Below are positions 1-18,922 of a DNA stretch of 64,000 nt, piece by piece. The notes under the pieces were generated by a model. It was not told where the DNA came from, did not search any database, and saw only the letters and a program-made list of their open reading frames with translations. Numbering within the stretch: the first letter of the stretch is position 1; each line of letters begins with the position of its first letter. The translations under genes and the position numbers were made by a program. This stretch comes from Luteibacter sp. dw_328 (lineage in GTDB: Bacteria > Pseudomonadota > Gammaproteobacteria > Xanthomonadales > Rhodanobacteraceae), in the NCBI RefSeq assembly GCF_018449605.1, contig NZ_JAAVUW010000007.1:62001-126000 (forward strand), read 5' to 3'.

Positions 1-255
1 GAATTCAGGTCGCGAACTTGGCCACTTGAACAGGTAACAATCGTGGTTGTGCCAGAAACATCCATGAACGAACACCGCGGTGCGATAGCGTGGAAGGACT
101 AGGTCGGGGTGTCCCGGCAGATCCTTTCGATGGAGTCGAAACCGTAAGCCAGCGGCATGAAGGAGACGGCGAACGGTCAGCTCCGGCTTGGTGTCCTTAC
201 CGCGAATTCCGGCCATCATCCGTGAGCGCCTAGCTGAGTCTACAATGTCTGTCAC
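1..255 (-). CDS. vsr: Very short patch repair endonuclease Vsr, 3' part cut by window edge
   Basis: Vsr nicks DNA next to T:G mismatches that arise when 5-methylcytosine deaminates, so it protects cytosine-methylated sites from C-to-T mutation. Reading the minus strand from a GTG at 255, the 85 visible codons contain the family hallmarks: MMAGIRGKDTKPEL near residue 13, then RFRLHRKDLPGHPDLVLP (the PD catalytic region), FVHGCFWHNHDC (zinc/His cluster) and FKWPSSRPEF at the edge. The GTG is preferred because AGGAG lies 7 nt upstream. The rest of the protein (roughly 50-70 residues in typical Vsr) is outside the window. It diverges from the cytosine methyltransferase with about 65 nt between starts, the expected partnership for dcm-type enzymes. 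Identification is firm; only completeness is unknown. Confidence 0.93.
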   Translation of the reverse strand, partial: MTDIVDSARRSRMMAGIRGKDTKPELTVRRLLHAAGLRFRLHRKDLPGHPDLVLPRYRTAVFVHGCFWHNHDCYLFKWPSSRPEF

Positions 256-320
256 GCGACAACTCCTGGCGAAAGTCCCTCGACTTGATATCCTATGCGT
301 CTCTAGGGGCGCGTACATCT

Positions 321-1901
321 ATGTCGAGTAAAATCAGCGTCATTGACCTTTTCGCTGGGCCAGGGGGGTTGAACGAGGGATTCTCTTCGTTTGTCAATGG
401 AAAAGGCCAATCGCCTTTCCAGACAGCCATTTCGATCGAGAAGGAAAGCAGCGCTCATTCGACGCTGCTCCTCCGTGCGTTCTATCGCCAGTTCCCTCAT
501 GGCGAGGCCCCCTCTGAATACTACGATTTTATCTCCGGCAGGCTCGGGCCGCGTCCGGAGTCTTCGTTGTACTCACTCGCAAAATTCCGGAAACAAATTG
601 CCCGTGCTCGCGAAGAGGCTCGCTGTCTTACCTTAGGCGAGCACGACGACGAGATCGATGCCGCTCTCCATACTTCAATGGGCTCGAATCGTGAATGTGT
701 CGTCATCGGCGGTCCACCCTGCCAAGCCTATTCGCTTGTCGGCCGATCGAGAAGAATGAGCGACGCCTCATACGTGGCGGAAAACGACGGCAGAAACTTC
801 TTGTACCAACAGTACTTGCGTATTATCACCAAGTGTCGTCCTGTCGCGTTCGTTATGGAGAACGTAAAGGGGATGCTATCTGCGGAGGTCGGGGGGGAGC
901 GCGTCTTTCATCGCATTCTGGAGGACCTGCAGCGCCCTTGGGGGCGCTCTAAGAAGGGCGGACTGGGCTATCGCATTTACTCGCTCGCGGTTCCTTCGGG
1001 CGTCGATGCTGGGGTTCTGGACGACCCCGCGGATTACGTGGTTAAGATGGAGCGATTCGGGATTCCCCAAGCGAGACACCGCGTTCTTCTGTTCGGCATC
1101 CGCGAGGACGTTGCGCCGCGATGGCGGCCGAACCTGCTGTTGGAGCAAGCCGCTGAGTTAACGGTAAGAGATGTCATTGGCGGCTTGCCGAAATTGCGCA
1201 GCGGCGTCTCGCGGACCGATGACAATCGCGATACTTGGCGCGCCGCTATGTCGGGCCTGAAGGCCAACTTGGCTGAGGTGCGAGCTCATGCAGGGGCACG
1301 TGTCGTCGAGCAAATTCGAGCAGCGATCGACGAATCGCTTACCGTTCCCGATTCTCGTGGGCAGAATTTTTCGCCGGACTCTGTTCCGGCGCGGATTTTC
1401 GGGAGCATGCCTCGATCGCTGCGCCGTTGGTACGCGGACCCATCGGGTAGGGGGTTGCTATGCAATCACGAGTCGCGAAGTCATATGCCCGGTGACTTGC
1501 AGAGGTATCTATATTGCTCCGCCTGGGCAAAGGTGGCACAGGGCAATCCTTCATTGCACCCTTTTCCCAAGCCATCTGACTATCCTGAGTCGCTAATCCC
1601 AGCCCATAGTAATTTCGCTTCGGGTCACTTTGCGGACAGGTTTCGAGTGCAGGTTGAGAATAGATTCGCGACGACCGTAACGAGTCATATTGCGAAAGAC
1701 GGCCACTACTTCATTCACTACGACCCGGCACAATGCCGCAGCCTCACCGTGCGCGAGGCTGCTCGCATCCAGACGTTCCCAGATAACTATTTTTTTGTAG
1801 GCAATCGAACACAGCAATATGTACAAGTCGGCAACGCTGTGCCACCGCTTCTTGCCGCAAAAGTTGCACAAATAGTGGCTACTCTTCTAAACGTGCATTG
1901 A
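321..1901 (+). CDS. dcm: DNA (cytosine-5-)-methyltransferase
   Basis: Transfers a methyl group from SAM to carbon 5 of cytosine in a specific DNA site. All the main C5-MTase motifs are visible: motif I DLFAGPGG (residues 9-16), motif IV GGPPCQ with catalytic Cys134, motif VI ENV (180-182), motif VIII QARHR (250-254), and the C-terminal motifs IX-X ending in QVGNAVPPLLA. About 200 residues between motifs VIII and IX form the target-recognition region. I use ATG 321, with AGGGGCG upstream; a TTG at 285 would add 12 residues but has no better ribosome site. Length (526 aa) is normal. It is followed after 67 nt by the three-gene ATPase operon on the same strand, so it probably supplies the self-modification mark for that module (inference). 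The recognition sequence cannot be read from the protein. Confidence 0.95.
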   Translation: MSSKISVIDLFAGPGGLNEGFSSFVNGKGQSPFQTAISIEKESSAHSTLLLRAFYRQFPHGEAPSEYYDFISGRLGPRPESSLYSLAKFRKQIARAREEARCLTLGEHDDEIDAALHTSMGSNRECVVIGGPPCQAYSLVGRSRRMSDASYVAENDGRNFLYQQYLRIITKCRPVAFVMENVKGMLSAEVGGERVFHRILEDLQRPWGRSKKGGLGYRIYSLAVPSGVDAGVLDDPADYVVKMERFGIPQARHRVLLFGIREDVAPRWRPNLLLEQAAELTVRDVIGGLPKLRSGVSRTDDNRDTWRAAMSGLKANLAEVRAHAGARVVEQIRAAIDESLTVPDSRGQNFSPDSVPARIFGSMPRSLRRWYADPSGRGLLCNHESRSHMPGDLQRYLYCSAWAKVAQGNPSLHPFPKPSDYPESLIPAHSNFASGHFADRFRVQVENRFATTVTSHIAKDGHYFIHYDPAQCRSLTVREAARIQTFPDNYFFVGNRTQQYVQVGNAVPPLLAAKVAQIVATLLNVH

Positions 1902-1968
1902 GCCATCTCGAAGCTCTCGTAGCCCAAGATAAGAATCGTAACTAATGATTTCCAAGGGGGAGATCAAC

Positions 1969-3828
1969 ATGCAGATCGATCGGTCATTCAAGGTGAACGG
2001 CCATGTCACGAGATTGGGTAGATTTTTACCCTTCAGTGCCGCTCATGATCAGATCTACGAGGAGTATCAGACAGAGGACGATGCCCTTGACTTGGATACT
2101 GTAGCGATCGATTACGCCAAGAAGGCTCTTTTCTCAGGTGCGACCTGCATCGTTCTCACGGGCGACGCTGGTCACGGAAAGACCCATATGTGTCGGCGTC
2201 TTCTGCAAGAGCATCTCGGATACTCAGGTCACGAGGCACGCGCGCTGCTGAATTCTGCCTGTGACGGTGAATCAGCGATCTTGAGTAACGTTCTTGGTTC
2301 ATCAGAAAGGTTGCGGATTCACAAGGACTTCTCCGAGACGGCACCCGAGATGGCCGCTCGGTACCTTGAAGGCGCGCCAACGCATTACGGTGAGGCGTTG
2401 ATAGTCTGCGCGAACGAGGGTCGACTTCGGGCGGTTCTGAATCAGCCATCGGCTGGCTCAGTGGCCAGGACGATCCGGGAGCTCTTCAAACAGAGCTTCG
2501 TGACGGGCGTGGCGTCAGCCGACGGTAAAATCCACGTAATTAACCTGAACTACCAATCCGTCGCAGCGGTAACTCCGCCTGAAGCGAGTTTGGTCCGTCG
2601 GACCCTTGAGAGATGGGTGGGCGACGGTCGCAGATGGGGCCAGTCGGCGTGCGGAAGCTGCCAATCCGAGAGTGTGTGTCCTATACGTCGGAATCGATAC
2701 CTCTTGGCGGAGGACGCGGAGCTGTCGCCTCGCCGCGTGGGGAAACTGGAAGAACTGTGCGCAACGGTTGAGCGTTTGGGGCACGTCATAACCATCCGAG
2801 AGATGCTTATGTTGGTCTCGTACGCAATCACCGGCGGTCTGACGTGCACAGACGTTCACAGTCGGGGAAGCGCCCCAGGCTGGCAAACTGACTATAGTTT
2901 CTATAACGCGATATTCGCACGCGTTCCCACAATTCCCCGCGACCGACTTCACAAGGGAATACCGATCCTGACCGCCCTCGAGACTCTGGATCCGGGCGCG
3001 GTGGCGAACCGCTCATTAGACGAGCGACTTCTGAACGAAGGGCATTCCTTTAAGGAAGGCGAACTAGACCTGCAGTTTAGCTACCCCGGTAGGGCTTATC
3101 CGGTAGATGGCGCTCTTGGGATCGATGAGGTTATCGGAAATCCGCAGAGCCATTCGGACCTGCTACGTGAGTCCGCGCTATGTGGCACTGTAGTTGCAGC
3201 TCTCAGGCGACGGTCTTTCTTTGACGACGAGACCACCGCGAGCGAGCTATTAGCGCGCCTCGGTTTCAGGTTTGGTGGTGAGTTCCTTGACTTGGTTGCT
3301 GGTCGCCTGTCTGCCCAAGTCACAATTAAACTGAAAAACTTGATTGTCGCGGGCCTTCACGCCGTTCAGGGGCTGCGTCTCTCTCGGACGGAGACGATGC
3401 TTCATCTCGTTGATCCGGCGTTCGGGCGTGCGAGTGTTGACGCGGCAATTATTGCAAGGCGCCTGCCGACGAGCGCGTTAACACTCATTCCTTCCGGGGA
3501 AGCGTGGATGCGCGAGCACCGAGAGTGGCCGATTGAGAAGTCAGTCGACTGGATCGATCGCTTTATCGTTCTTCGCGTGGAAGATGCATCCGGCGGCATC
3601 GCCGATCTTCAATTGGATCTTCTAGCGTTTGAGTGTCTGGCAAGGGCGGCATCAGGCCTTGTCTCGGAAGATTTCTACGCAAGTCAACTTAGAAGAGTGC
3701 GGTCCTTCCTGGGAACGTTGGCGGACCGCGGCAAAGCCGGTGAGCCTCAGGTTTCCCTATTCATCAATGGGGCCGTTCAGAACGTGTCGCTTGACATGGG
3801 CGTTGTCCAAGTAGGGGGTGTGTCATGA
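1969..3828 (+). CDS. P-loop ATPase with Cys cluster, DptF-like
   Basis: A 619-aa protein with a clear Walker A motif GDAGHGKT (residues 65-72) and a probable zinc site, CxxC-x5-C at 228-237 followed by PIRRN. Start is ATG 1969 because AAGGGGGAG ends 6 nt before it; the earlier in-frame ATG at 1945 would place that ribosome site inside the gene. The stop overlaps the next start (ATGA), so the three genes are translationally coupled. Size, P-loop and position as first gene of an F-G-H-like trio ending in a giant FtsK-type translocase recall DptF/DndF, the NTPase of phosphorothioation-dependent restriction. This match is from memory of architecture, not an alignment. It could also be a distinct ATPase family in a methylation-linked system. 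No export signal or membrane segment is seen. Confidence 0.6.
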   Translation: MQIDRSFKVNGHVTRLGRFLPFSAAHDQIYEEYQTEDDALDLDTVAIDYAKKALFSGATCIVLTGDAGHGKTHMCRRLLQEHLGYSGHEARALLNSACDGESAILSNVLGSSERLRIHKDFSETAPEMAARYLEGAPTHYGEALIVCANEGRLRAVLNQPSAGSVARTIRELFKQSFVTGVASADGKIHVINLNYQSVAAVTPPEASLVRRTLERWVGDGRRWGQSACGSCQSESVCPIRRNRYLLAEDAELSPRRVGKLEELCATVERLGHVITIREMLMLVSYAITGGLTCTDVHSRGSAPGWQTDYSFYNAIFARVPTIPRDRLHKGIPILTALETLDPGAVANRSLDERLLNEGHSFKEGELDLQFSYPGRAYPVDGALGIDEVIGNPQSHSDLLRESALCGTVVAALRRRSFFDDETTASELLARLGFRFGGEFLDLVAGRLSAQVTIKLKNLIVAGLHAVQGLRLSRTETMLHLVDPAFGRASVDAAIIARRLPTSALTLIPSGEAWMREHREWPIEKSVDWIDRFIVLRVEDASGGIADLQLDLLAFECLARAASGLVSEDFYASQLRRVRSFLGTLADRGKAGEPQVSLFINGAVQNVSLDMGVVQVGGVS

Positions 3829-5117
3829 GCTCGGCGCCAGCTGCTCCGGAAGTGACCACTGAGCTATTCGGCGGGACCTTTGTCATTGACGGCTCAGGTT
3901 TCTACCCCGGCCTTGAGTTGATAAATCTTGTCGTTACGTCGCTTGATGGGCCGCTGCCGTCAGGTGACATCGTGCAAGTTCGTCGTGTCGCACATGACTT
4001 TGCCAGAAGGTTAATTCGTGACGGCGGCCTCACTGAGGCCGTCCGGCGGAACGTCATCCTTGATGAGCACACCGAAGTTGCTGTAGGTAAGCTCTTTCGG
4101 TGCTTAGAGCTCCCAACTCCTAACGTCGTGAAAGCAAAGAGTTGGGGGAGAACACATTTCTTTCCCTATTCGCGCTCATTGGTGCATTGGGATGCAAGAG
4201 TAAGATATCGAGCGAAAGGCGAAGAAGTGTCTGCCGAGCGGATCTATCTGCGCGGCGGTGGAGCGTACGCGTTCACTGTGCTACGCAAGGACCCGAATGT
4301 AGGGCGGCGCCAGGCCATCCAAGACGGCTTCAATCTTCTCTACCCTCTGCACGATGACTCGCCGCTCGATCGCATCGCGGCAGTGCTTCGCGCGCAAGGA
4401 TACGTGGACAGTGACCCGGTCGAAGACGTCATCGAGCGGAAGTCGGTCGTTGTCGAGAGTAGGTGGACCGAGCTCTACCGAGACGGCGTCGCAAACATAC
4501 TAAGTTACGTCGGTCTGCCCTCCGTTCAGCGTGTTCGTGCGCTGATGAGCTGGACAGGTATCTGGATTGTGCTCTTGCAGGCATCAGAGAGTTCGCGATA
4601 CGTCAACGCGTCCTATAAGGGAATTATTCTGGATTGCGCCGGAGAGCATGCGCAGCTGCGACGAGCCGCCCAGCGGTCGCTTAAGGAGTCGCTTTCAGTG
4701 ATAGGAGAGGCGTCGCTCGCTGCTTCAGTCAAGCTGGGCTCCAAGCTCAATGCCAGTCAGCTTGGCCAAATCAAAGGATTCTTTGCGAGCACGGCTAGCA
4801 CTTGCGGGCTTCTGAATTCTGCAAAGGGCCGCCGTCACTTTACTCTGAAGCTCGACGCAATTGAGAGCTTGGTGATGGCTTCCGTTTGCGAGGGGGAGGA
4901 ACGCGAGTTTGAATCTTTTGCGGGTGATTGGTTGTTCGGTCGATGCCAACTGGTGATAGGTAGAAGCGCTGCTGAATCGGCTAGCTTGCTGGACACGTTC
5001 GACGCCACAATTTTTGAAGAGAACGAGAGAGCCTTGGCAGAGCGAATCCGCGCCACCGGGATGCTAAGAGTCTATTCGGATGCGACCCGAATGGTCGCGG
5101 CAGGAGCTGTGCAATGA
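3825..5117 (+). CDS. Middle subunit of the restriction-like operon, DptG-like
   Basis: A 430-aa soluble protein with no motif I can name. It sits between the P-loop ATPase and the FtsK-type giant and overlaps both by 4 nt (ATGA), which implies coupled translation and a stoichiometric complex. DptG/DndG, the middle protein of the DndFGH restriction set, is of similar length and is also short of recognisable motifs, so the assignment rests on position and size. No signal peptide, transmembrane segment or nuclease motif is visible. The functional link to its neighbours is well supported by gene overlap; the family name is tentative. Confidence 0.5.
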   Translation: MSSAPAAPEVTTELFGGTFVIDGSGFYPGLELINLVVTSLDGPLPSGDIVQVRRVAHDFARRLIRDGGLTEAVRRNVILDEHTEVAVGKLFRCLELPTPNVVKAKSWGRTHFFPYSRSLVHWDARVRYRAKGEEVSAERIYLRGGGAYAFTVLRKDPNVGRRQAIQDGFNLLYPLHDDSPLDRIAAVLRAQGYVDSDPVEDVIERKSVVVESRWTELYRDGVANILSYVGLPSVQRVRALMSWTGIWIVLLQASESSRYVNASYKGIILDCAGEHAQLRRAAQRSLKESLSVIGEASLAASVKLGSKLNASQLGQIKGFFASTASTCGLLNSAKGRRHFTLKLDAIESLVMASVCEGEEREFESFAGDWLFGRCQLVIGRSAAESASLLDTFDATIFEENERALAERIRATGMLRVYSDATRMVAAGAVQ

Positions 5118-8100
5118 GCTATCGGACCATCGCAAGGACGGCCCTTGCAATTGCGGTACATGTTCTCAAAGAGACGGAAGACGCGAGCCACAGATGCTTT
5201 CGAGTAAAGAATCTGCTCGCAGAAGAGGTCGGCCACTTCGTGAATCTCTGGCCCGCAGTCTCCAGTCGCCCGAGCATGGAGAATGTTCGTCTAGTTTCGG
5301 CGGAATCAGCGGGCGGTGCAATTCCCGACGCCTTCGTTGCAGAGCCTGGTCGATCGATCACTTATTACCGGAACAATAACCCAGGTGGTCTCGTTTACCT
5401 TGAGACCAGAGTTCAAAGCGACGAGCAGGGCCTGCAGAATATCTTTACTCTGCGTGACAGCAACTTTCTTGACGGAAGTTTCGACAAGTCGGCTGCAGGA
5501 GAGGACTCGGTTCCAGAGCTGATTGTTCAGATGGCATGGGGTGTCACGGGCGGATCAGGATCCGGCGAGAAGGCTCCTCGCCTGTTGGTGTCCTTGATTA
5601 AGGAGCTCCTTTCAATACTTCACCCTGAACTGATTCCGATACCAGTTCGACGCTTCGCAACGTTCGCCGAAGCTGTCTCTACACAATGGCGATCCAGCGC
5701 CCAAGCTTTTGATGCCGAGGCAGCAACGACTCTGATTGGAAGCAATCTTTGGCTGTTGGGATTGTTCCCAGATATGAACTGGCGCTCGACAGTGTCCGAC
5801 GCCAGGACGAAGCGTCGACTGACGACGAACTCGCGGTTGGCCGACCTATCTAGCCCATCCGGTGATCTCGATGCCGACATGTTGGTCAAGCGAATTCGAG
5901 AGACGAAGTTCAATAACCAGTCGGGACTTCCATTAGCAGAAGCGGAGCAAGTTCGGCTCAGAAGTCTTTGCGCAGATTACGTGCAAGGGCCTTCAACTGA
6001 AAAGCTGAGACTCATTGACTTCTTTATCTTTGAGCAGCTCTTTGCGCTAGATAGCGTTGGCCAACCCCTCGGCGATCGCGTCACTAATGAAATTTCATTG
6101 GTCGGCGCGAGTCGATCAGCCGAGCTTTTAGCCTTGGATGTGGTCACGGGCCTTAATGCGAAGATTCAGTCCGACGCTGAAAGGCTTATGGTGGCCGAGC
6201 CATTGGTCCCTGGAGATGCACGGATCTTTGATCTCCTCACCGCAGCCACAAAACGCTTGGTCGAACGTGTTGCGACCCCTAGAGTTCGGCGGTTCTTCAA
6301 CCCGTGCATCGAATTGGTGCGTTTCTATAACCAGGCGGCCGTGGCAGGCGAGAGGGTTGCGCGGATCGAAGTACAGCTTTCCGCAGATGTTCGAACGGAC
6401 TCACCCTCCCTCGGTCTCTTTACGTTTCTTTTTGCGGGTAGCCTCAGGGCGATTCAAGGAAGCATCGAAGGCCTTCCCTCGTCCTGCGAGCTGGTGCTAT
6501 CCGAGGACCTTGTGCGGCAGCGGCCAATCCCGAGCTTAATCGTCGAACCTGATGCAGATGCGGGTGACGATGAAGAGGAGGCGGCAATAGAGTGGGAGGA
6601 GCTGGCGCTTCGATTCACTGCGTTTGGCAGCGGCGGTAGCGTGATAGAAGTGGCCGATCAGGTTCGATGGGCTAGCGATTCGATGGGCCTCCATGCGATG
6701 TTCTGGCTGCTTGTTGTCGATGCGCAGTCTCCGTTGAGTTCGACAATGGGAAGCTTGAGGGTGACAGCTGAGGATGATCCCGCTCAGTGGCACCTACGGT
6801 ACGTGCAGCGCATCGCTAGTTTGGCCTCGCTGAAGAGTAACTCGACGCTCACTCTCGACTCGCTCTGTCTCGAGGTTGTTAGAGACAGAGAGTGGCTTCG
6901 TTCAGCGGTAGCCGGCGAGGGTTTGAGTGCCGAAATACTGAACGTATATGGCGACCGTTGGCTGGGTAATCTCGAACGGGCCAGGGAAACCTATGTTCCC
7001 AACGGGCGGCATATCCCGGAGATGGACGCTTTCTTGACGACAGACTTTGTTGTCGTCGGTCCCGACGGCCGAAGAGTAATGCTGCCGACCCACCCGATCA
7101 GGCTTAGGTGGTTGGCGAGCTATCTGGGGCGATGCGTCGACCTATCGGTTGCCTGTCTTTCGGGTGACCTCAAGTTCTCCGATTCAGACGGCTCAGACTA
7201 CCTGGCTTGGTTGGAGGATCATTCTCCTCACGAATCGCCGGCCGTCGCTGCGGATGAGCAAGGCACTCTTCTCTATGCCAAGGGAGAGGCCGGTTGGTTC
7301 GAAGAGTTCGGGGCGCTGGACGATGACGTAACAGACGTCTCGTCCGATCGGTACGCGTTAGACAGTATTGCGGGACAGGTTACGAAGTATTTAGAGGCCC
7401 ACCCATATAAGGAGGCTGGTCTCTCGATGCTCGCTGTGCTTCCCTCGTCGGACGACTTCCCTGCGACTTTGCTCGAGCTGACCGCCCGCGGCCGATGGCG
7501 TCGTATGAGGGCGTCCATGACAGTCGCAGCGCCTAAAGGTCGTTGGGAGACGATCGCTCGAAAGTTCGAGCAGCTTGACTCCTCGGATAGCATCGGCAAA
7601 CGCGCTGGCCTATTTCCTCGCTTCGATCTGACCTTCGTTGAGTTCGATCGCGGCGGTGACATCGCGGGTGCCATTGGTGACGCCGAATTTGACCTCTCGA
7701 TAGTTACGCATATCCTGCAGGATAGTGTGCTTTGTCAGCCGAACACGGAAGCGCCGAGTGCGCGACCGGGCCGGTTCGATCCGCTTCTTGATCGACCAGT
7801 TCGCCTCGATAAGCAAGGTGACGGAGGCTCCATTTCGGTTGTCATGCGTCCGCGCGACCCAGATCCACTCTTGGAGGCTTGGTCGACACTTGTCGTCCGT
7901 GCGAACAGGACCCGTCCGGTCGCGCCGGATCAACCCGAGAATATAGATTTCGTCGAGCTTCGAGTGAACTTTGAAGACTCTGCGAGGTTGTTCAATGCGC
8001 TACATCAAGCTTCGCATTGGGTGATTACTCTGGAGCGCCATATTTCTCGACAGCAGATCGAATCGACAGAGGCCGGTGCGCCAGATGTTCTTAGCATCCA

Positions 8101-10192
8101 GGACCAGATCGGTAACAATGGATTGAGCACGTTGATAGTGTCGTCGAGCTCGGGTCGTCGCCTTATTGAGTCTCGGATCTCGAGAAAGCTTGGCAGGCTT
8201 GTACCCCATGATAGGGAAGCAGATGCTTCGTTAGTCCTGCCGATTCTGGCAGCTCAGATATATGATGAGACGCGTCGCATTGCGCCTCACCTAGCGCTTC
8301 GCGCCATGGGGATTTCGCGGGTGACAGAGGAGATCCTCGGACTGTATGTCGCTCGATCCACCGCCGAGAGGCTGTACCCTGCAACGCCTAAGGATGGATT
8401 TCGCGTCTGGCTGAGTCTCGATGATCACGCAACTTGGTTCGGAGGCCAAGGGCAAGTGCGCCCTGACATGTGTCGCTTCTGTTTTGAACGGGCAGATGAC
8501 GGTAGCGTCCTTCTCGACGTCCTTGTCCTGGAGGGAAAGCTTCGTCAACAGTATGACGCACATGGTGTCGAGCAAGTCCTTCGGGGCGTTTCGTTCTTCT
8601 CTGGCGTTCTTAGCCATCAATCGACAAAGGATAGAATCGACTCCGAGATGTGGAATGAGCGGATTTTGGCAGCAATGGAATCCACAGCTGTTGAGGCGAG
8701 GCAGGCGTTTGGCGTAACGGCAGAAGAGAGGGCGCGAGGAGGGGCAATTCCTGCTGACATCCGAGCTAGTATTCGTGAGGGGCGTTTCGTTCTTAGGTCG
8801 CTGACTGGCTTGTACTGCATCACGCTGTGGGACGAGCTGGAGGCCGCTGAGCAGGTTCAGGATGAGCGGGGCATTACGGTCGTCCGGGCAGCAGGCAGAG
8901 CGCTATTCGTCGCCACATCACCGAGCAATTTATTTGAGAGTCCCGCGCTCGCAGAACTGCATGCTTTCGAGCCGACGGTTCACCCAGAACTGACTGGCGC
9001 AGTATCTATAGCGGTCACTGAACCCAATGACTCGACCTCGGCAGGCCACTTTGCAATGGATGCCACGGACTCGCATGCACCGGGGCCGTTGACATCTGCT
9101 TCTCCCGGTCCCGATGGCGTTGCGCGCAAGCGAATGACGAACGAAGAGCTTCTTCGCATTTACGGCGAGGTCTTGGGGTGCTTTGCCGAGCACGACGTCC
9201 AGGTCTCAAGAGCCCCCGACGACGACGTACCATTCGTGGAGGGGCCGGCGTCGATACTCTTCCGTGTGAAGCCTGGCCATGGGGTCGACCCGAAGAAGCT
9301 CTCGGAAAAGTCCGCCGCGCTCAAGCTGAGCCTTCGTCTTTCCGAAGAGCAGAACGTCGCTTTTGGTATTGATGCCGGCTACGTAACCGTTGACGTGCCA
9401 AAGAGTTCAGCGCAGCGATATTTTGTATCCGCCGAGGCGATGTGGAGTCGTTGGACTCGTCCAGTCGGCGTGTTGGAGGCGCCTCTTGGCGAGGATCGCT
9501 TCGGAAAGATCATAAGCATATGTTTCAGTTCGTCAAATTCGCCGCATCTTCTCGTTGGTGGCACCACGGGAAGCGGCAAGTCTGAAGCCTTGAATACGAT
9601 CCTCTTCGGTCTCTGTCACTTCTACGCAGCCTCTGAACTGCGTCTACTCCTGGTAGATCCAAAGGGCACTGAGCTCCTACCGTTTGAAGGCAGTCCGTAC
9701 CTTCACGGGACGATTGGCTGGGACGATGGGGACGCCCTGTTACTTTTGAAGGAAGCAGTAGAGGAGATGCAGAGGCGATACGCACTTTTCAAAGCACTGG
9801 GAACCAGGACGATATCCGACTACAACTCCGTTGCGCCATCCGATGAGCGGTTGCCGTGGTGGGTCATTGTTCTTGACGAGTACGCCGATCTCACCAACGA
9901 TGCCCAATCGAAGAAGGACATCGAACAGGAGTTGAAGCGTCTGGCACAGAAGGCGCGCGCTTCCGGTATCCATCTGATTATCGCTACGCAAAAACCAAGT
10001 GCAGATGTCATCAGTACCAATCTGCGGTCCAACCTGCCTGCTCAACTTGGGTTGCGGGTTAAGAGCGCAACGGAAAGCCGGGTCTTGATCGACGAGGCCG
10101 GCGCAGAGGTCTTAAACGGCAAGGGCGATGCACTCCTCAAGGCAGATGGTAAGGTCGTTCGCGTTCAATGTGCCCGGGTGGCGGGCGTCTAG
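5114..10192 (+). CDS. Giant FtsK/HerA-type DNA translocase, DptH-like
   Basis: A 1692-aa protein, last gene of the trio. The C-terminal 220 residues are an FtsK-family motor: Walker A GGTTGSGKSE (1482-1491), DPKG after strand 2, Walker B VIVLDEYADL with D1588/E1589, then HLIIATQKPSADVI and GAEVLNGKGDALL, the conserved end of FtsK/SpoIIIE motors. The preceding ~1450 residues match nothing I recognise and contain an acidic stretch near 480-490 (DADAGDDEEEAAIEWEE). DptH/DndH proteins are also about 1700 aa with a C-terminal FtsK/HerA ATPase, which supports the DptH-like call. It probably moves along DNA and drives or regulates cleavage (inference); no nuclease motif is obvious. The following 277 nt up to the convergent gene hold nothing I recognise. 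Confidence 0.65.
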   Translation: MSYRTIARTALAIAVHVLKETEDASHRCFRVKNLLAEEVGHFVNLWPAVSSRPSMENVRLVSAESAGGAIPDAFVAEPGRSITYYRNNNPGGLVYLETRVQSDEQGLQNIFTLRDSNFLDGSFDKSAAGEDSVPELIVQMAWGVTGGSGSGEKAPRLLVSLIKELLSILHPELIPIPVRRFATFAEAVSTQWRSSAQAFDAEAATTLIGSNLWLLGLFPDMNWRSTVSDARTKRRLTTNSRLADLSSPSGDLDADMLVKRIRETKFNNQSGLPLAEAEQVRLRSLCADYVQGPSTEKLRLIDFFIFEQLFALDSVGQPLGDRVTNEISLVGASRSAELLALDVVTGLNAKIQSDAERLMVAEPLVPGDARIFDLLTAATKRLVERVATPRVRRFFNPCIELVRFYNQAAVAGERVARIEVQLSADVRTDSPSLGLFTFLFAGSLRAIQGSIEGLPSSCELVLSEDLVRQRPIPSLIVEPDADAGDDEEEAAIEWEELALRFTAFGSGGSVIEVADQVRWASDSMGLHAMFWLLVVDAQSPLSSTMGSLRVTAEDDPAQWHLRYVQRIASLASLKSNSTLTLDSLCLEVVRDREWLRSAVAGEGLSAEILNVYGDRWLGNLERARETYVPNGRHIPEMDAFLTTDFVVVGPDGRRVMLPTHPIRLRWLASYLGRCVDLSVACLSGDLKFSDSDGSDYLAWLEDHSPHESPAVAADEQGTLLYAKGEAGWFEEFGALDDDVTDVSSDRYALDSIAGQVTKYLEAHPYKEAGLSMLAVLPSSDDFPATLLELTARGRWRRMRASMTVAAPKGRWETIARKFEQLDSSDSIGKRAGLFPRFDLTFVEFDRGGDIAGAIGDAEFDLSIVTHILQDSVLCQPNTEAPSARPGRFDPLLDRPVRLDKQGDGGSISVVMRPRDPDPLLEAWSTLVVRANRTRPVAPDQPENIDFVELRVNFEDSARLFNALHQASHWVITLERHISRQQIESTEAGAPDVLSIQDQIGNNGLSTLIVSSSSGRRLIESRISRKLGRLVPHDREADASLVLPILAAQIYDETRRIAPHLALRAMGISRVTEEILGLYVARSTAERLYPATPKDGFRVWLSLDDHATWFGGQGQVRPDMCRFCFERADDGSVLLDVLVLEGKLRQQYDAHGVEQVLRGVSFFSGVLSHQSTKDRIDSEMWNERILAAMESTAVEARQAFGVTAEERARGGAIPADIRASIREGRFVLRSLTGLYCITLWDELEAAEQVQDERGITVVRAAGRALFVATSPSNLFESPALAELHAFEPTVHPELTGAVSIAVTEPNDSTSAGHFAMDATDSHAPGPLTSASPGPDGVARKRMTNEELLRIYGEVLGCFAEHDVQVSRAPDDDVPFVEGPASILFRVKPGHGVDPKKLSEKSAALKLSLRLSEEQNVAFGIDAGYVTVDVPKSSAQRYFVSAEAMWSRWTRPVGVLEAPLGEDRFGKIISICFSSSNSPHLLVGGTTGSGKSEALNTILFGLCHFYAASELRLLLVDPKGTELLPFEGSPYLHGTIGWDDGDALLLLKEAVEEMQRRYALFKALGTRTISDYNSVAPSDERLPWWVIVLDEYADLTNDAQSKKDIEQELKRLAQKARASGIHLIIATQKPSADVISTNLRSNLPAQLGLRVKSATESRVLIDEAGAEVLNGKGDALLKADGKVVRVQCARVAGV

Positions 10193-10469: not shown

Positions 10470-12134
10470 TCAGAGCGACCATTCCTCCCGGATGAACTCG
10501 ATGATCTCGTTGGTCCGGGTCTCCACATTCTTCGCTTTCCAACCTTCTTTGCGAACGACCGCGGCGACATGGCGCGTGGCACGGATGCCGGAATCTTCGT
10601 AAGCCTTGATCTTGTCGGCCGGTGACTTATCGCGCAACGACGAATTCACGCCGGGTGGCAACATCGTAAGGTTGCCGAGTTGGTGGATGAAGCTCCGATT
10701 TGAGCTCTGAGGAGTTATATGTTCAATGGATTTTGAGGGATCCTGCTGCCAGATCTTCTTCCACTCGCCTACATTGATCTTTTCCCCGTGCTTGCTGGAA
10801 AGGTGCTCCTCGTAGCGATACAGGATATATCGGAGCGGCTCCGCCCAGCCGGAGTAGCAGTCACTCCAGTCGGCATTTGCTAAGACCTTGTCGATATGAT
10901 GGTCACTGCCTGGGATCGCTATGAGGCGATCGCAGATGGCATCGGCGCTCATCGATCCATTCACTATCTCGTGTCCGAGTCGGGTGTACTCGCCAACCTT
11001 TTTTCGCTTATCGGATCCACCGAGACCATACACGAGGAACGTGACGTGCTCCCATGCCTTCATCGTGCGAAGTGCGTCACTCGCAGCCAACTTCCGTATA
11101 TCGATGCAGGTGGCGGCAAATCTGGCCTGCATGACACTAGTAACGGCCTTGATCCGATGATTCTGATCGAGCTTATCGATGGATTCGACGATCGATTCAA
11201 GGATGCGGGCGACCTTGATGATCGAAGGAAGATCCTTGCCTGCCGCCCGAATAAGCTCCGCCGCCGCATCTTCTTCGCTAAGTATGCGATTGGGTATGTA
11301 ACTCAGTTGCAGCGTGCCGGCAAATCTCAGCGCCTGATCTGCCAGGGTCCCGCGAAGGCCGACCGTCCGGTAGATGCGCCGCCATATCTCCCGCATCTCG
11401 TCTAGGGCTTCCTCCATTGCGCCGCCCTTGGCGCTTGAGAAAATGAGCGCCATGAGTTGGCTCTTGACCTTGTCAACCTGCTTAACGTCCAAGCCGCGGC
11501 TATTCAACACCTCAAATACGCGGTAGACAGAAGCTTCGTCCGTCAGTTCGTGATAGATCATCGATAGCCGATTTCTGAGAATCGAAACCAGGTCAATCAA
11601 GGTGGAGGTCTTTTGCCATCTAGTTACGAAACTCTGGCACTCCATGCAGGCGTCGATTAGGTTTCGCTCGGCCTCAGTCGTATGGGCGTTGGCGCCATAC
11701 GCTCCCGATCGGATGTAATCGGCGAACACATTGGTACTGTCGTGGTTCGTCTGAAGCAGTAACAGCGAATGATCGTCAGTCTTGACGAGAAGGTCCTTGA
11801 TCTCAGACCGGATCTTGGACTCTACCTTGTCGTCGAGATCCAGTGCCTGCTCGACTGCCTTCAGCAGGACAATCAGCGTGGTGATGCGTTGCTGACCGTC
11901 GACAAGGTCGACGGCGGTGTACTCGTCGGCAACAATCTTTCGCCTATCCTTAACGAGCGCAACCACCGTAGCCATGAAGTGATCTTGGTCTGTCTCCTGC
12001 ACTTCTTCGATGTCTGAAAAGAGTTCGTCGCGTTGCTGTTTCCGCCACGCATACGGCCTCTGGTAGTCAGGAATGCGGAAAAGTCTGCCTTGAAGAAGTT
12101 GTGCAAGCGTGTAATGTTTCGGATCCAGCCGCAT
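10470..12134 (-). CDS. GmrSD/SspE-like type IV restriction nuclease (DUF262 + DUF1524)
   Basis: A 554-aa two-domain protein. The N-terminal DUF262 domain has FRIPDYQRPYAW (19-30) and the DGQQR nucleotide-handling motif (79-83). The C-terminal DUF1524 His-Me-finger domain shows IEHITPQ followed by LGNLTMLP. This order is shared by GmrSD, BrxU and SspE, enzymes that cut foreign modified DNA or sense phosphorothioated DNA. It is convergent with the FtsK-type gene and lies 129 nt downstream of the dynamin-like operon on the same strand, so it may belong to either system. Length is typical of single-chain GmrSD relatives. Whether it attacks modified phage DNA or acts with the upstream modules cannot be decided here. 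Confidence 0.85.
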   Translation of the reverse strand: MRLDPKHYTLAQLLQGRLFRIPDYQRPYAWRKQQRDELFSDIEEVQETDQDHFMATVVALVKDRRKIVADEYTAVDLVDGQQRITTLIVLLKAVEQALDLDDKVESKIRSEIKDLLVKTDDHSLLLLQTNHDSTNVFADYIRSGAYGANAHTTEAERNLIDACMECQSFVTRWQKTSTLIDLVSILRNRLSMIYHELTDEASVYRVFEVLNSRGLDVKQVDKVKSQLMALIFSSAKGGAMEEALDEMREIWRRIYRTVGLRGTLADQALRFAGTLQLSYIPNRILSEEDAAAELIRAAGKDLPSIIKVARILESIVESIDKLDQNHRIKAVTSVMQARFAATCIDIRKLAASDALRTMKAWEHVTFLVYGLGGSDKRKKVGEYTRLGHEIVNGSMSADAICDRLIAIPGSDHHIDKVLANADWSDCYSGWAEPLRYILYRYEEHLSSKHGEKINVGEWKKIWQQDPSKSIEHITPQSSNRSFIHQLGNLTMLPPGVNSSLRDKSPADKIKAYEDSGIRATRHVAAVVRKEGWKAKNVETRTNEIIEFIREEWSL

Positions 12135-12263: not shown

Positions 12264-13862
12264 CTAAGTGTCTCCATGGCCTAGGGGGCCGGCCGAGGAA
12301 CTCATGGAAGCCCAAGACAGGGGGGCGACAGCTTCGGCGCGCACTGGTCGCGAAATGCCCGACACCGGACCGGTGACGACCTCGACGCATTCGACGAAGC
12401 ATTTTCTCAGCTGACGCGACTGCTCAAAAAGAGCTTTCACAGGCGCTACGGACAGTGCCTTCTTCAGCTCCGTGATGTTCGGCGCCATCTTGTCGCGGAA
12501 TTCGGTTCCGCCGGATGCGAAAGCGGCGAGATCGAGGCGGGAGACCAGCATGCGCTGGCGTTCAGAAAGCTCGCGGTCACTCTCCAGTGCTTCGTCGTAC
12601 ATGTCGAATACATCGTGGATGCGGTTAACAAGGGACGAGCCCGCGTCGCCGGGCACATTGGCCTTGCGCAGAAAGTCATGCAGTGAGAGACCCATAAACG
12701 CGAGTTCTCGCTTCAATGCCGCGCTGTAGGCACTAATACCTGCGACATCGATCCCACGCAGATCGAGAGCAAGCGATACGGCGTCTATGATCTCTTCAAT
12801 ATCTTCTTTTGAACGCTGATCGCTCTTGTTAAGCACCACGTATATGGGGCGTCCGTGCCCTATCTCGCATATAAAGGCCATGTCGGATTCCGGAATCACG
12901 CCGTTTACGTCGATTCCGATCATCCAGACCAGCTCATCAGCGCGGTGTGCGAGATTGGAGGCTTGATGACGGTCTCGCGCGCCGCCCTCCGATACGCCGT
13001 GGCCGGCGTTGTAGCCTGGTGTGTCGATGAGGCAAAGATGCTCAAAGAGCTCCGGATTCAACTGAGTTCGGACAAACATGAGCGGCATCAGGTCGCTCAG
13101 GTCGAAGCCGATCGAGCGAACCAGATCATGTGACAGGGTGGCGTAGAACGACGGATCGAGGTCGATTTTTCCTCCACTGGCCGCGCAGGCTTCGATAGCA
13201 GACCGGTCACTTGGTATGACGTAACTAGGAATGACTGTTACCGGTACGATTCCCTCAGCGAGGCGAACATCGGCGTCCTGGATGAAGCTGTTGATGAAAC
13301 TGGACTTTCCTGCGCTAAAACCGCCGACTATACTCACGATGCGGCGTCGGTGGATGTCGGGAAAGCGGGCGAGCATCTCGAGCTCACCGGCCACCGATTG
13401 CAGCATCATGAGCGATTTGGCTTCCGCCGCAAGTGACGACTCTGCGTCGGCAAAGCGAAGGTAGTCGTCCGCGAGCAAGCGGTTGAACTCGCCGACACCC
13501 GGATTTGGCTCGGGTTTGGCGTCGTGAAGCTTGCTTATCAGGGTGGACATGGCTGACGTTGACGCAAATCTCTTTGCCAGGTCGTCGTGTACCGCGGCCA
13601 GGTGGGCAGTTCGCAGGGTGGACGCCTCTACAAGGTCGCTCAGGGCCTCGACTTCCGTTAGAAGCTCAGCCCCCCTGCGCAGGGAGACCTCCAGGCTGGC
13701 CTGCAACTCGTCCCTCCGCGCGCTCAGGGTGGTGACCTGTTCGTCCATTACCAGTACGATCGTTCGAATCTCGCTGGCGAGCCGGCGTCGCTTCCAGACA
13801 AACGGCTTCCCGACACGATCGAGTGCGGAGAACAGTTCGCCGGCTACTAATCTCTCTGTCAT
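12264..13862 (-). CDS. Dynamin-like GTPase (third of three)
   Basis: A 532-aa large GTPase. G1 is GGFSAGKSS (180-188), G3 is DTPG (280-283) and G4 is NKSD (345-348). Residues ~35-110 before the G domain are rich in heptad-like Leu/Glu/Arg and probably form a coiled coil. The C-terminal portion after the G domain is short (about 150 aa), so a full dynamin stalk is unlikely within this chain; it may assemble with the other two GTPases. Its start overlaps the stop of the preceding gene by 4 nt. Bacterial dynamin-like proteins in tandem occur in membrane remodelling and in anti-phage systems such as Eleos (LeoBC); a defence role here is inference from the island context. Confidence 0.82.
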   Translation of the reverse strand: MTERLVAGELFSALDRVGKPFVWKRRRLASEIRTIVLVMDEQVTTLSARRDELQASLEVSLRRGAELLTEVEALSDLVEASTLRTAHLAAVHDDLAKRFASTSAMSTLISKLHDAKPEPNPGVGEFNRLLADDYLRFADAESSLAAEAKSLMMLQSVAGELEMLARFPDIHRRRIVSIVGGFSAGKSSFINSFIQDADVRLAEGIVPVTVIPSYVIPSDRSAIEACAASGGKIDLDPSFYATLSHDLVRSIGFDLSDLMPLMFVRTQLNPELFEHLCLIDTPGYNAGHGVSEGGARDRHQASNLAHRADELVWMIGIDVNGVIPESDMAFICEIGHGRPIYVVLNKSDQRSKEDIEEIIDAVSLALDLRGIDVAGISAYSAALKRELAFMGLSLHDFLRKANVPGDAGSSLVNRIHDVFDMYDEALESDRELSERQRMLVSRLDLAAFASGGTEFRDKMAPNITELKKALSVAPVKALFEQSRQLRKCFVECVEVVTGPVSGISRPVRAEAVAPLSWASMSSSAGPLGHGDT

Positions 13863-16129
13863 ATCGCCTCAAGCTCCTTCTTCATCAAGGCGAAACGTTC
13901 GCGACTGATGGCGAGGCTCTCAATATGTCCGATCAGTGAATCGACTCGCCCCAGTAGGTCGTCGAATACGACATGTGCAAGCGTCTTCGGAAGTGATGCG
14001 TGCATGCTCGCTACGAAATCATGAATGTTCGTGGTCGCATCGTCGCGCAGGGCGAGAAATGTCATGCGCACGTCCTCGATAAATGAGTTCGCTGCGCTTC
14101 CGACGAGTTTCTGTTCTGATGGCCAGCTGCGATCTACCTTTACCGGCGCAGGGAGATCAACCTTCAGGCTGTTCACTGCCACAGTCACTGCCCGGGAAAC
14201 CCACGAGATGATCGTCTCAGATGCAAGTTCGTTATCATCGTCATCAGCGCCGCCACTTATCTCATAAGCCCGAATGAGTTGATGCTCTGCGGCTCGGACC
14301 AGCGCCGTCTCAATATCGGTGCGAGCGCGGGTCTCATTGCGTTCCGATGTGGTAATAATTCGGTCATTGAGTTGTCGCGCGAATAGTTCCAGGGCCGTTA
14401 CGGCCTGGTCTCGGAAAACCGTGAGCGTTTCTGTCTTGACCTTTCCGCCGTCCCAGAGAACGTCAGCAAGCCAGTTTCCTACGCCGTCGCCGGTTCGCTC
14501 CCCCTTCACCACGTGCTTTGCGTCGGCAGACCGTTCGACCGCCTCGTCGTAAATCGTCACCAGCGCTTTGGTGAGCTCTACTGTCATGGCATCAAGGAAG
14601 CTGTGCTTCCATGCAACGAAGGCCCCGTCGATGGCGTGGCCGGCCTTGGTGGCGGCGTTCTCAAGCTTCAGCCGCTGTCCCCTTAGCGCCTTGACATCTG
14701 TGGCGTCGAGCTCCGCGCTGCGCTTCTCCACCTCTTGCCTAAGCGCAGACTTGAGGTCTCTCACAGCGATCGACTTTGCTGTCACCAGATCATCCAGCTT
14801 ACTGGCCATGAGGGCCGCCTTGCGCTTCCGCACCTCGTCGATGGATGCCTTCAGCCGATCGATATTAGAAAGCAAGCGAAGAGTGGCTTTGCTTCTTTCT
14901 GGATTGCCCTCGTCAAAGAATTCGGGAAAGTGCTCGCTGAGGTTGCGCCAGACAGTACGATCCGTCGAGTCCCAGCTGTCCGTTTCGTCAAATCTAGTTG
15001 CAAGGCCTTGGCATGCACTCGACGTCCAGAGGAGTGTTTCTTCAGCCGCGTTGATAAGCTCATCAAAGGCACCGCGGAACTCGGGATTAGAATCGGTGAG
15101 CCGAGTAAGCGTGCCTCTCATGTGACCACGAAGTACGGAGCTAATGCCCTCTAAGGTCGCCTCAGGCGTCGCGCGCTTCTCGCTTCCGAAGAGCTGGTTA
15201 TCGACTTGGCTTGCGACAACGGCTAGGTGCCTCACCCCTTCCCTGCGGGTGATGAGGCTCATCGCCTCAATATCGCGATGATTCAGGAACTGGCCCGCTG
15301 GGCTCACGATGAAGATGACATCGCAATCCTTGAGTAGCTGACGGGTACGTTCCTCGCGGGACTGTACCGGGTCATCCATGCCTGGCGTGTCGACGATACG
15401 GATATCCTTTAGCCACTCGATTGGCATATAGATGTCGACAGACTTGGTGAAAGGCATATACCGGCCCTCGGGACCAACAAAGTCCATAAGGCGTGCCGCC
15501 AGGTCTTCAGGCGAACTGCCATCGATCGCGCCGGGCCGTTCGGAATCGACGCCATGACGCGCCGCTTCAATGCGCCGCCACTGATCGTGGGACGCCGCCA
15601 TGGATGGCGCTTCCTCGGTCGCAGTACGCAACGACTGGCGTTCCGCGAGATCACGTAGACGATTCATGTCGGGCGCCGGCTGCGCGTTCTCGCGCGCCCG
15701 CGACAACGTAGAGGCGATGATCCCATCGGCAATCAATTTCCGCCTGTCTTGAAAGCGCTTTCCGTCACCGGAGATTCTTTCCAGATCAGCACTGGAAAAG
15801 TACTGGACCTCCGCCCGGAACGTTTCGCCGAACGCGAGCGTGGTCAGGGCCGCCGTCATCGGCGTGGCGGCCTTCGGCAGGACTGGTTTGCCGTCGAACA
15901 GCAGGGCGTTGAGCAGCGATGATTTACCAGCCTTTACTCGACCGACGATGCCGATTGTCAGGAGGCGCCCCGCATCCTCAGCTCCCGCGATGGTCGCGGC
16001 GAGCCGGTCATGCGTATCGACGCCATGCTTGGATGCCTGGACAGAAAAATCCCTTCCGATGACGTCTTGGTAGGTATCGGACCATGCGTGCAGCCTGCGT
16101 ACTTTTTCGACCAAAGCAACCGACATCAT
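13859..16129 (-). CDS. Dynamin-like GTPase (second of three, largest)
   Basis: A 756-aa GTPase with G1 GRVKAGKSS (63-71), Thr in the switch-I region (ATPMTAALTTL) and G3 DTPG (247-250). The G4 position reads SQVD rather than NKxD, a divergent base-recognition motif. A long C-terminal half with heptad-like helices (for example the stretch from residue 440 to 480) fits a dynamin stalk. It overlaps both neighbours by 4 nt, so all three GTPases are likely made together. The three proteins differ clearly in length and motif detail, so they are not a recent triplication. Likely membrane-associated assembly factor; its target membrane and trigger are unknown. Confidence 0.82.
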   Translation of the reverse strand: MMSVALVEKVRRLHAWSDTYQDVIGRDFSVQASKHGVDTHDRLAATIAGAEDAGRLLTIGIVGRVKAGKSSLLNALLFDGKPVLPKAATPMTAALTTLAFGETFRAEVQYFSSADLERISGDGKRFQDRRKLIADGIIASTLSRARENAQPAPDMNRLRDLAERQSLRTATEEAPSMAASHDQWRRIEAARHGVDSERPGAIDGSSPEDLAARLMDFVGPEGRYMPFTKSVDIYMPIEWLKDIRIVDTPGMDDPVQSREERTRQLLKDCDVIFIVSPAGQFLNHRDIEAMSLITRREGVRHLAVVASQVDNQLFGSEKRATPEATLEGISSVLRGHMRGTLTRLTDSNPEFRGAFDELINAAEETLLWTSSACQGLATRFDETDSWDSTDRTVWRNLSEHFPEFFDEGNPERSKATLRLLSNIDRLKASIDEVRKRKAALMASKLDDLVTAKSIAVRDLKSALRQEVEKRSAELDATDVKALRGQRLKLENAATKAGHAIDGAFVAWKHSFLDAMTVELTKALVTIYDEAVERSADAKHVVKGERTGDGVGNWLADVLWDGGKVKTETLTVFRDQAVTALELFARQLNDRIITTSERNETRARTDIETALVRAAEHQLIRAYEISGGADDDDNELASETIISWVSRAVTVAVNSLKVDLPAPVKVDRSWPSEQKLVGSAANSFIEDVRMTFLALRDDATTNIHDFVASMHASLPKTLAHVVFDDLLGRVDSLIGHIESLAISRERFALMKKELEAI

Positions 16130-17920: not shown

Positions 17921-18922
17921 TCAGGCGCCCACATAGTTGAAAACTGTTTTACGGGCTTCTTCTAGTAACTCGTCGCGGAGGGCAACTGGTTCGCGCACCT
18001 CAACGCCGCTGCCGAAGGCTTTCAGCCACCAGCGGAGCGTCTGATCCGACTCTACGGTCGCCGTCACCGCCACTCGGCGGATTGCTGGTAGATCAGTGAT
18101 TGTCTGGTCCGCGGATAGCGGTGTTTCACGCAAGTGCTCCGCGGCCTCAGGCGTGAAGTGAGCGACAAGCCGTATCTCGCCCTGCGACTCGTATTTGGCG
18201 GCGACTCTTGCGTAGGTGGAGAAGACGAAACCAACTGGAACGCGGGCAGTGTCATGTGTTGGTCGTGTGTCCGACAGTCGGTGCAGTGCTAGCTGACGGA
18301 TGTCTGCGTAATCAAAGAGGGTGCATACCAGGTACTGCACAGACCCACGAACCAGTAGCCCTAATGGATGAATTGTGAGATCGCGAACATCAGACGCCCC
18401 TTTTGATCGATAACCGGCGATCAGCTGGCGACGGGTGGCGAGCGCCTCATGCACATCTCTTAGTACGCACCGATCAATTGCGGGTGGCAGCAGGGCGAGC
18501 GCCGACGGGATGACCGCGGTGCGCCGGTGCCACTCGTTCCATGCGCCCGCTGCGAGCTCCTGGTTTGCCATATCGAAGATCGGCGCGAGTTCGTGCATCA
18601 AGCTATCGGGCATCAAAGTGCGAAGGTGGAGCTGCGCGAGCAAAAGCGCGATGCCCTGCGAAACGCTTAGCTTTGGAGTGAACTCGAAGTTTGCATCTCT
18701 GGCCCAGTACCAGCCAAAGGGTTTGCTGGATTCGTCCGCGACAAGGGGAAAACGCACAGACAGGGTCTGGAGGTCTCGTTCGACGGTCCGCCGGGTGACT
18801 TCAATGCCTTGGCGGCTGAGCGAGCCGCGCAAATCTGATGCGGTGGTTCGCCATGGCGCCCGCGGAATCAAGCGCAACAGGGTCCATTGGCGCCAAATCG
18901 TGTCATTCGTTGCAGTGCTCAC
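17921..18922 (-). CDS. WYL-domain transcriptional regulator
   Basis: A 333-aa protein with an N-terminal winged helix (residues ~8-60, including SRQGIEVTRRTVERDLQ), a central WYL domain (IHPLGLLVRGSVQYLVCTLF) and a C-terminal WCX-type domain. I start at GTG 18922, preceded by GGGGGCGGAG; a longer reading from 18988 adds 22 residues that look like leader. WYL regulators such as BrxR and CapW control phage-defence operons and respond to nucleic-acid signals. Here it heads the dynamin-like GTPase operon and diverges from a small-protein/GIY-YIG-like set, so the 18923-19089 interval probably contains both promoters and its operator. No obvious operator palindrome was found by eye. Confidence 0.85.
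   Translation of the reverse strand: MSTATNDTIWRQWTLLRLIPRAPWRTTASDLRGSLSRQGIEVTRRTVERDLQTLSVRFPLVADESSKPFGWYWARDANFEFTPKLSVSQGIALLLAQLHLRTLMPDSLMHELAPIFDMANQELAAGAWNEWHRRTAVIPSALALLPPAIDRCVLRDVHEALATRRQLIAGYRSKGASDVRDLTIHPLGLLVRGSVQYLVCTLFDYADIRQLALHRLSDTRPTHDTARVPVGFVFSTYARVAAKYESQGEIRLVAHFTPEAAEHLRETPLSADQTITDLPAIRRVAVTATVESDQTLRWWLKAFGSGVEVREPVALRDELLEEARKTVFNYVGA

What the first reader, a model, noticed from the sequence alone, without database searches (positions are those of the whole stretch)
1..10192. A cytosine-methylation-linked DptFGH-like restriction module without phosphorothioation genes
A dcm/vsr pair abuts a coupled operon whose three products match DptF/DptG/DptH in size order and in the C-terminal FtsK motor of the third, yet no dndBCDE or sspBCD genes are in the window. 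If homologous, the restriction machinery may have switched from reading phosphorothioate to reading 5-methylcytosine as self mark. That would be a distinct defence type.
Basis: partly seen in the sequence, partly recalled or inferred. Interest (0 to 1): 0.88.

Follow-up and report, generated by a model that had tools for sequence, protein, structure and literature searches.

The report
Methylation-linked version of a phosphorothioate-type restriction system
A three-protein DNA-cutting defence complex that is best known for working with enzymes that mark the host's own DNA with sulfur has here, and in relatives from several bacterial phyla, a cytosine-methylating enzyme beside it instead, which suggests that the same cutter can work with a completely different chemical 'self' label.

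Summary
Window 1945-10192 encodes three overlapping genes matching SspF, SspG and SspH; the SspG model folds like DndG (Z 15.0). A C5 cytosine methyltransferase (C5-MTase) lies directly upstream, with divergent vsr. The genome shows no SspB, no DndC over cut-off and no second C5-MTase.

Survey of 88 loci: a C5-MTase is in the flanks of 17 of 21 loci of the window's group and 24 of 26 of an actinobacterial group, SspB/C/D in 0 of 47; of 41 other loci, 33 have SspB/C/D and none a credible C5-MTase. On the SspF tree the C5/phosphorothioate label changes once. SspB is absent genome-wide in 40 of 40 C5-group genomes tested and present in 10 of 10 controls. Among loci with a C5-MTase, its type changes seven times on the tree while FGH stays. 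SspH nuclease residues are invariant in 77 of 77.

Most likely this is a restriction system in which 5-methylcytosine marks self. That FGH reads 5mC is inferred, not shown. My literature searches found no prior report.

The parts
1..318 (-). vsr, mismatch endonuclease (cut by the window start; whole gene in L003:17761-18318)
   Evidence: Pfam Vsr 5.3e-34; NCBIfam vsr 141.6 bits for the whole gene
321..1901 (+). C5 cytosine DNA methyltransferase (longest ORF from TTG 285; probable ATG 321), C5 motifs I, IV, VI, VIII and X present
   Evidence: Pfam DNA_methylase 5.5e-40; PADLOC DrmMII 3.3e-87; motifs; start region
1945..3828 (+). SspF homologue, P-loop NTPase (ATG 1969 after GGGGGAG is an alternative start)
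   Evidence: PADLOC SspF 2.5e-35; P-loop residues invariant in the 11 sequences of A1; sequence
3825..5117 (+). SspG homologue, DndG fold
   Evidence: PADLOC SspG 3.7e-16; AF2 pLDDT 92.8; DndG 7exx Z 15.0, rmsd 6.3, 328 aligned
5114..10192 (+). SspH homologue: methyltransferase-fold domain about aa 734-1013, nuclease-type residues D1118, E1140, K1142, Q1154, FtsK-type motor about aa 1446-1690
   Evidence: PADLOC SspH 8.6e-79; Pfam FtsK_SpoIIIE 8.2e-34

Best explanation
A restriction-modification system in which the C5-MTase methylates cytosines of a target motif in the host genome and the SspFGH-type complex attacks DNA that lacks that mark. Inferred division of labour: SspG (DndG-like fold) and the methyltransferase-like part of SspH, probably catalytically dead, recognise DNA and its modification state; the conserved D...ExK...Q nuclease of SspH nicks or cuts; the FtsK motor moves on DNA; the SspF NTPase controls the complex; Vsr repairs T:G mismatches left by deamination of 5mC. 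Shown here: homology, gene order, conservation of a C5-MTase with absence of the tested PT genes, conserved catalytic residues. Inferred: that 5mC protects, that FGH cuts unmethylated DNA, and every step of the mechanism.
For: Gene overlaps in the window; in L034 vsr, C5-MTase, F, G and H lie on one strand, with overlaps of the longest ORFs at vsr/C5-MTase and C5-MTase/SspF. C5-MTase in the flanks: 17 of 21 and 24 of 26 loci, 40 of these 41 within about 1.5 kb of the trio; the four misses of the first group are cut by contig ends; other loci 0 credible of 41. C5/PT label: 1 change on the 84-row SspF tree (41 C5, 33 PT, 10 unlabelled). SspB genome-wide: 0 of 40 C5-group genomes, 10 of 10 PT controls. 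C5-MTase (39 loci) and Vsr (19) are by far the most recurrent neighbours; the next clusters hold 3-5 actinobacterial loci. Among loci with a C5-MTase there are 7 types of it and 7 changes of type on the tree, e.g. L049 and L064: SspH 90% identical, MTase core 30%. Nuclease residues invariant 77 of 77, motor residues 76 of 76 ungapped. Published: SspFGH without its modification partner damages host DNA and impairs growth in E. coli (PMC8092258, Results part 1), so a partner that marks self is expected.
Against: No biochemical or phage data. Two Nocardia loci with both flanks visible (L050, L054) have no C5-MTase there; their genomes have one elsewhere, with a Vsr hit in the same fetched stretch, that scores only 84 and 88 bits on the C5 profile, and the genome of L054 also has DndC over cut-off, as has that of L042. 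L033's C5-MTase sits beside an AspBHI/Mrr-type nuclease gene and L032's beside an unassigned ORF, so these two may belong to other systems; without them 5 MTase types remain. Near-identical SspH go with only distantly related MTases, awkward for a complex tuned to one methylated motif unless the motif is shared. PMC10853773 proposes DndFGH as a stand-alone system (section 25). With 1 change of label the many loci are not independent; the count of MTase exchanges looks only at loci that have a C5-MTase.
Confidence: 0.72

Rival explanations
1. 5mC is an activator rather than a shield: as SspE is stimulated by PT, FGH in this group senses 5mC on DNA and acts under infection.
For: SspE is PT-stimulated (PMC8092258 Discussion); the methyltransferase-fold domain in SspH could bind methylated DNA either way (speculation).
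Against: PT-linked SspFGH, the homologue, damages DNA without the mark and is harmful without its partner.
Confidence: 0.12
2. FGH is a stand-alone system and the C5-MTase with Vsr protects the host against other enzymes or tunes expression; the linkage is selected but not as mark and reader.
For: Stand-alone proposal for DndFGH; no C5-MTase in the flanks of L050 and L054.
Against: C5-MTase in 41 of 47 loci, kept through 7 changes of MTase type, while 33 of 41 other loci carry PT genes in the flanks.
Confidence: 0.1
3. Chance neighbours in defence islands.
For: The window locus does lie among other defence-type genes.
Against: 0 credible C5-MTases in 41 other loci against 41 of 47 here; one C5-MTase in the 5-Mb genome; no other gene family recurs widely (ORFs of 120 aa or more, greedy choice).
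Confidence: 0.02
4. PT modification is supplied in trans by genes elsewhere.
For: DndC over cut-off in 2 of 41 genomes, at E <= 0.001 in 5 of 41.
Against: SspB absent in 40 of 40 tested and in the window's genome; DndC below cut-off or absent in 39 of 41.
Confidence: 0.03

Closest known systems
SspABCD-SspFGH (PT-based; Vibrio anguillarum FF-93)
   Same: Three-gene FGH operon; PT-linked relatives found here are homologous in all three proteins and share nuclease and motor residues
   Different: SspB/C/D in 0 of 47 loci; a C5-MTase, often with Vsr, beside the trio
DptFGH/DndFGH (dsDNA PT-based)
   Same: SspG model matches DndG 7exx, Z 15.0; methyltransferase-fold domain, nuclease-type residues and FtsK motor in the order described for DndH
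   Different: No model named after DptF/G/H or DndF/G/H among the hits listed; DndC not over cut-off in the genome
CxC ABC-ATPase/DndE systems with cytosine methylases
   Same: Published case of cytosine methylases in place of PT genes (PMC10853773 passages)
   Different: That concerns the DndDE-type modification core with other nucleases; here it is the FGH complex. No DndD/DndE model is named among hits listed for the window genes scanned; the survey did not look for them
BREX type 4
   Same: Exchange of methylation and PT within one defence family (PMC12839542 passages)
   Different: There PT takes the place of methylation, with other effector proteins
Type II restriction-modification and DISARM (DrmMII)
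   Same: C5-MTase as self-marker; best PADLOC match DrmMII
   Different: FGH follows the MTase; no DrmA/B/C named among hits listed for the genes scanned

Membership tests
SspFGH restriction module | Three-gene operon with SspF, SspG and SspH homologues | tested here: met
SspFGH restriction module | SspABCD phosphorothioation partner | tested here: not met
   SspB absent in own genome and in 40 of 40 genomes of the group; SspC not searched genome-wide
SspFGH restriction module | Restriction of phage without the self mark | not testable with these tools
   Needs bench work
DptFGH/DndFGH | Sequence match to DptF/G/H models | tested here: inconclusive
   None listed among PADLOC or NCBIfam hits; no positive control run
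DptFGH/DndFGH | DndG fold in the second protein | tested here: met
   7exx, Z 15.0, rmsd 6.3, 328 aligned, next row 4.8; Foldseek alone E 0.06
DptFGH/DndFGH | Third protein with methyltransferase-fold domain, then D...ExK...Q residues, then HerA/FtsK motor | tested here: met
   Fold; residues; motor. The nuclease fold itself and the N-terminal domains were not tested; the DndH order is from PMC10853773
DptFGH/DndFGH | DndBCDE partner | tested here: not met
   DndC 19.9 bits in own genome, cut-off 290.4; other dnd genes not searched
Type II restriction-modification | C5-MTase with a cognate site-specific endonuclease | tested here: inconclusive
   C5-MTase present; whether FGH acts as its cognate endonuclease is untested
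DISARM | DrmMII with DrmA, DrmB, DrmC | tested here: not met
   Among the 10 neighbouring proteins scanned with PADLOC only the MTase lists a DISARM model (lists of three proteins were capped at 25)

The most novel reading that the evidence does not exclude
One conserved FGH nuclease works with two chemically unrelated self marks, backbone phosphorothioate and base 5-methylcytosine, in two separate lineages; the 5mC lineage spans Pseudomonadota, Actinomycetota and, by one metagenome-assembled genome each, Verrucomicrobiota and Thermodesulfobacteriota, and tolerates exchange of its methyltransferase for only distantly related C5-MTases.
Probability: 0.65. Interest if true: 0.82.

Novelty: new variant of a known kind. 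Interest (0 to 1): 0.73.

Why it matters
How DndFGH and SspFGH tell marked from unmarked DNA is open, the more so since PT occupies only 10-15% of its consensus sites in the studied case (PMC10853773 introduction, passage). It would also mean that FGH loci filed under PT defence by annotation need not use PT.

Tried and rejected
Viral contigs: two scans with SspF found no relative. Plasmids: 7 records hold SspF relatives of 22-26% identity; I fetched 6 of these and one more from the SspH search. Five have annotated PT genes beside FGH (L005, L007, L008, L009, L011); L006 and L010 carry no such annotation but score for SspC/D and SspB/C/D. The profile of SspG finds nothing in the PDB, that of SspH 590-1300 one designed protein at 0.38; the SspF profile finds weak P-loop hits, mostly myosins, best 0.0066, with McrB at 0.082. 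The SspH fragment search is filled by methyltransferases, so its other parts were barely tested by fold. The target-recognition domain of E. coli Dcm is 17% identical to the window's, so no target motif is proposed. My first neighbourhood count and the labels in the tree used a greedy ORF choice that hid the C5-MTases of L030 and L046; corrected after one search showed them. One search also gave one 38-bit, 91-aa antisense hit in L071, not counted. In one search (Pfam on 85 of the 92 ORFs listed) only 25 of 106 families are shown, so absence of DNA_methylase there is not established. The survey kept the best 80 of 200 relatives. The C5 profile was built from members of the C5 groups, which could favour them; a motif scan on the greedy ORFs of the 34 other loci then held found none. 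Where a locus has two C5-MTases (L043, L045, L049) the better scoring one was used for types.

Full report
What is there. The window (own genome contig C19:62001-126000) begins inside vsr. The C5-MTase (probable start 321) is followed by three coupled genes at 1945-3828, 3825-5117 and 5114-10192. PADLOC profiles name the three SspF, SspG and SspH (2.5e-35, 3.7e-16, 8.6e-79) and the MTase DrmMII or type II. Upstream, outside the window, are a Dam-type adenine methyltransferase matching PD-Lambda-5_B (352 bits) and an AAA ATPase (best PADLOC match AriA, 59 bits); downstream lie a GmrSD-family gene and three dynamin-family genes. The setting looks like a defence island.

PT genes not found. SspB (PF13182) gives no hit in the genome but rings in 4 of 4 PT-linked records and genomes. 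The single PAPS-reductase-family hit lies in what looks like a prophage region (my reading of the neighbouring ORFs) and scores 68 bits against SspD, compared with 280, 348 and 356 for three SspD beside FGH. DndC scores 19.9 bits against a cut-off of 290.4. The only C5-MTase matches in the genome are two halves of this gene. SspC, DndB, DndD and DndE were not searched for. Of 60 relatives searched (genus, family, order) none matches the window's SspF at E 0.001, so the trio was probably acquired horizontally.

Survey. A scan of genome contigs with an SspF alignment matched 284 stretches, 200 relatives by tblastn, best 80 kept; with seven plasmid loci and the window that makes 88 loci. Iterated profiles recover SspF in 88, SspG in 80 and SspH in 78. 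Six-frame ORFs were scored with profiles. I grouped loci by similarity to the window and by taxon before counting. Window's group (21 with the window; Pseudomonadota, one Verrucomicrobiota and one Thermodesulfobacteriota MAG): C5-MTase 17, Vsr 13, SspB/C/D 0; the four without are L026 and L042 (402 and 61 bases upstream of SspF visible) and L068 and L069 (contig ends inside SspF). L026's genome carries a C5-MTase and a Vsr on another, 10-kb contig, the MTase 47% identical to the window's in the core and 41% in the target-recognition region. Actinobacterial group (26): C5-MTase 24, Vsr 17, SspB/C/D 0. All other loci (41): SspB/C/D 33, Vsr 0, C5-MTase none apart from a 38-bit antisense fragment in L071; this group includes partial or distant relatives without recognised SspG and SspH (L071, L072, L073, L087). 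Genome-wide, I gave 40 of the 46 loci of the two C5 groups (window apart): SspB is absent in 40 of 40 and present in 10 of 10 PT controls (completeness of these genomes is not told). DndC passes its cut-off in 2 of 41 genomes (those of L042 and L054) and reaches E 0.001 in 5 of 41.

Tree. On an 84-row SspF tree (quick method; L068, L069, L071 and L072 too short) the C5 and PT loci separate at a starred branch; with corrected labels, 41 C5, 33 PT and 10 unlabelled, the label needs 1 change. Two points against my grouping: L042, which I counted with the window's group, falls beside the actinobacterial group, and L073 and L087, which I counted as other and which have neither module in their flanks, fall on the C5 side on the longest branches of the tree. 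The tool warns that such placements may be false, and names L040 and L070 too. The root is not inferred, so direction is open.

Exchange of methyltransferases. Clustering MTases by core identity (40% or 45%) gives 7 types, needing 7 changes on the tree; loci without a C5-MTase are not counted here. L049 and L064 have SspH 90% identical but MTases with 30% core identity; L061 has a third type with SspH 85% identical to L049's; L027 and L029 have SspH 90% and MTase cores 48% identical. Among the 13 other window-type MTases of the survey the target-recognition region is 36-43% identical to the window's. A Mantel comparison of MTase and SspH distances gives r 0.36 (16 loci, 2 of 2000 permutations as high) and 0.34 (24 loci, 37 of 2000). 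Repeated replacement by the same kind of enzyme is the best evidence here that a C5-MTase is needed. Caveats: L033's MTase is next to a gene with AspBHI and Mrr nuclease domains and L032's next to an unassigned ORF; both may belong to other systems. In an all-against-all comparison of neighbouring ORFs (120 aa or more, greedy choice) C5-MTase (39 loci) and Vsr (19), window included, stand out; the next seven clusters hold 3-5 actinobacterial loci each, nearly all Streptomyces.

Anatomy. SspG model: pLDDT 92.8; DndG 7exx at Z 15.0, rmsd 6.3, 328 aligned, next row BrxA at 4.8. SspH 590-1300 model: pLDDT 82.7; residues about 734-1013 match SAM-methyltransferase folds (best Z 15.6, rmsd 3.4, 175 aligned), but no glycine-rich SAM loop is seen in the 14 aligned sequences that I displayed, in keeping with the inactive methyltransferase domain described for DndH (PMC10853773 section 21). 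D1118, E1140, K1142 and Q1154 are invariant in 77 of 77 SspH; K1489, D1588 and E1589 in 76 of 76 without a gap there. That these residues form a PD-(D/E)xK nuclease is my reading; the fold search did not test that part.

Literature. Read: PMC8092258 (Results part 1, distribution section, Discussion), PMC10853773 (abstract, sections 12, 19-22, 25 and passages), passages of PMC12707154 and PMC12839542; of other papers only search listings with abstract beginnings. PMC10853773 reports DndFGH often without DndABCDE, and cytosine methylases with CxC-DndE cores; in the parts I read it does not report C5-MTases next to FGH. The searches listed no paper that I recognised, by title and abstract beginning, as describing an FGH-C5-MTase system; the library holds open-licence papers only and supplements could not be read, so this is no proof of novelty.

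Verdict. Genomic linkage: very strong. Function as 5mC-based restriction: likely, untested. I class it as a new variant of a known kind.

Noticed in passing
L003:14915-17495 (upstream of the window): AAA ATPase gene and a Dam-type adenine methyltransferase gene that matches PD-Lambda-5_B (352 bits); PD-Lambda-5_A was not among the 25 listed matches of the ATPase.
   Followed up: partly
window 10470-12134 -: GmrSD-family (DUF262-DUF1524) gene right after the trio; a relative (BrxU) is reported to act on m5C DNA (passage), which would be odd in a 5mC-marked host.
   Followed up: no
window 12264-17877 -: Three consecutive dynamin-family GTPase genes, followed by a WYL/WCX-domain gene at 17921-18988 -.
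   Followed up: no
L033:18241-20960: C5-MTase, Vsr and an AspBHI/Mrr-domain nuclease gene beside an FGH trio.
   Followed up: partly
L034:1869-12347: vsr, C5-MTase, F, G, H on one strand, with overlaps of the longest ORFs at vsr/C5-MTase and C5-MTase/SspF.
   Followed up: partly
L062 and L063: Two FGH loci with identical SspF rows under one Streptomyces carminius strain name.
   Followed up: no
L001 (own genome C11): PAPS-reductase-like protein in what looks like a prophage region, distant from SspD.
   Followed up: partly
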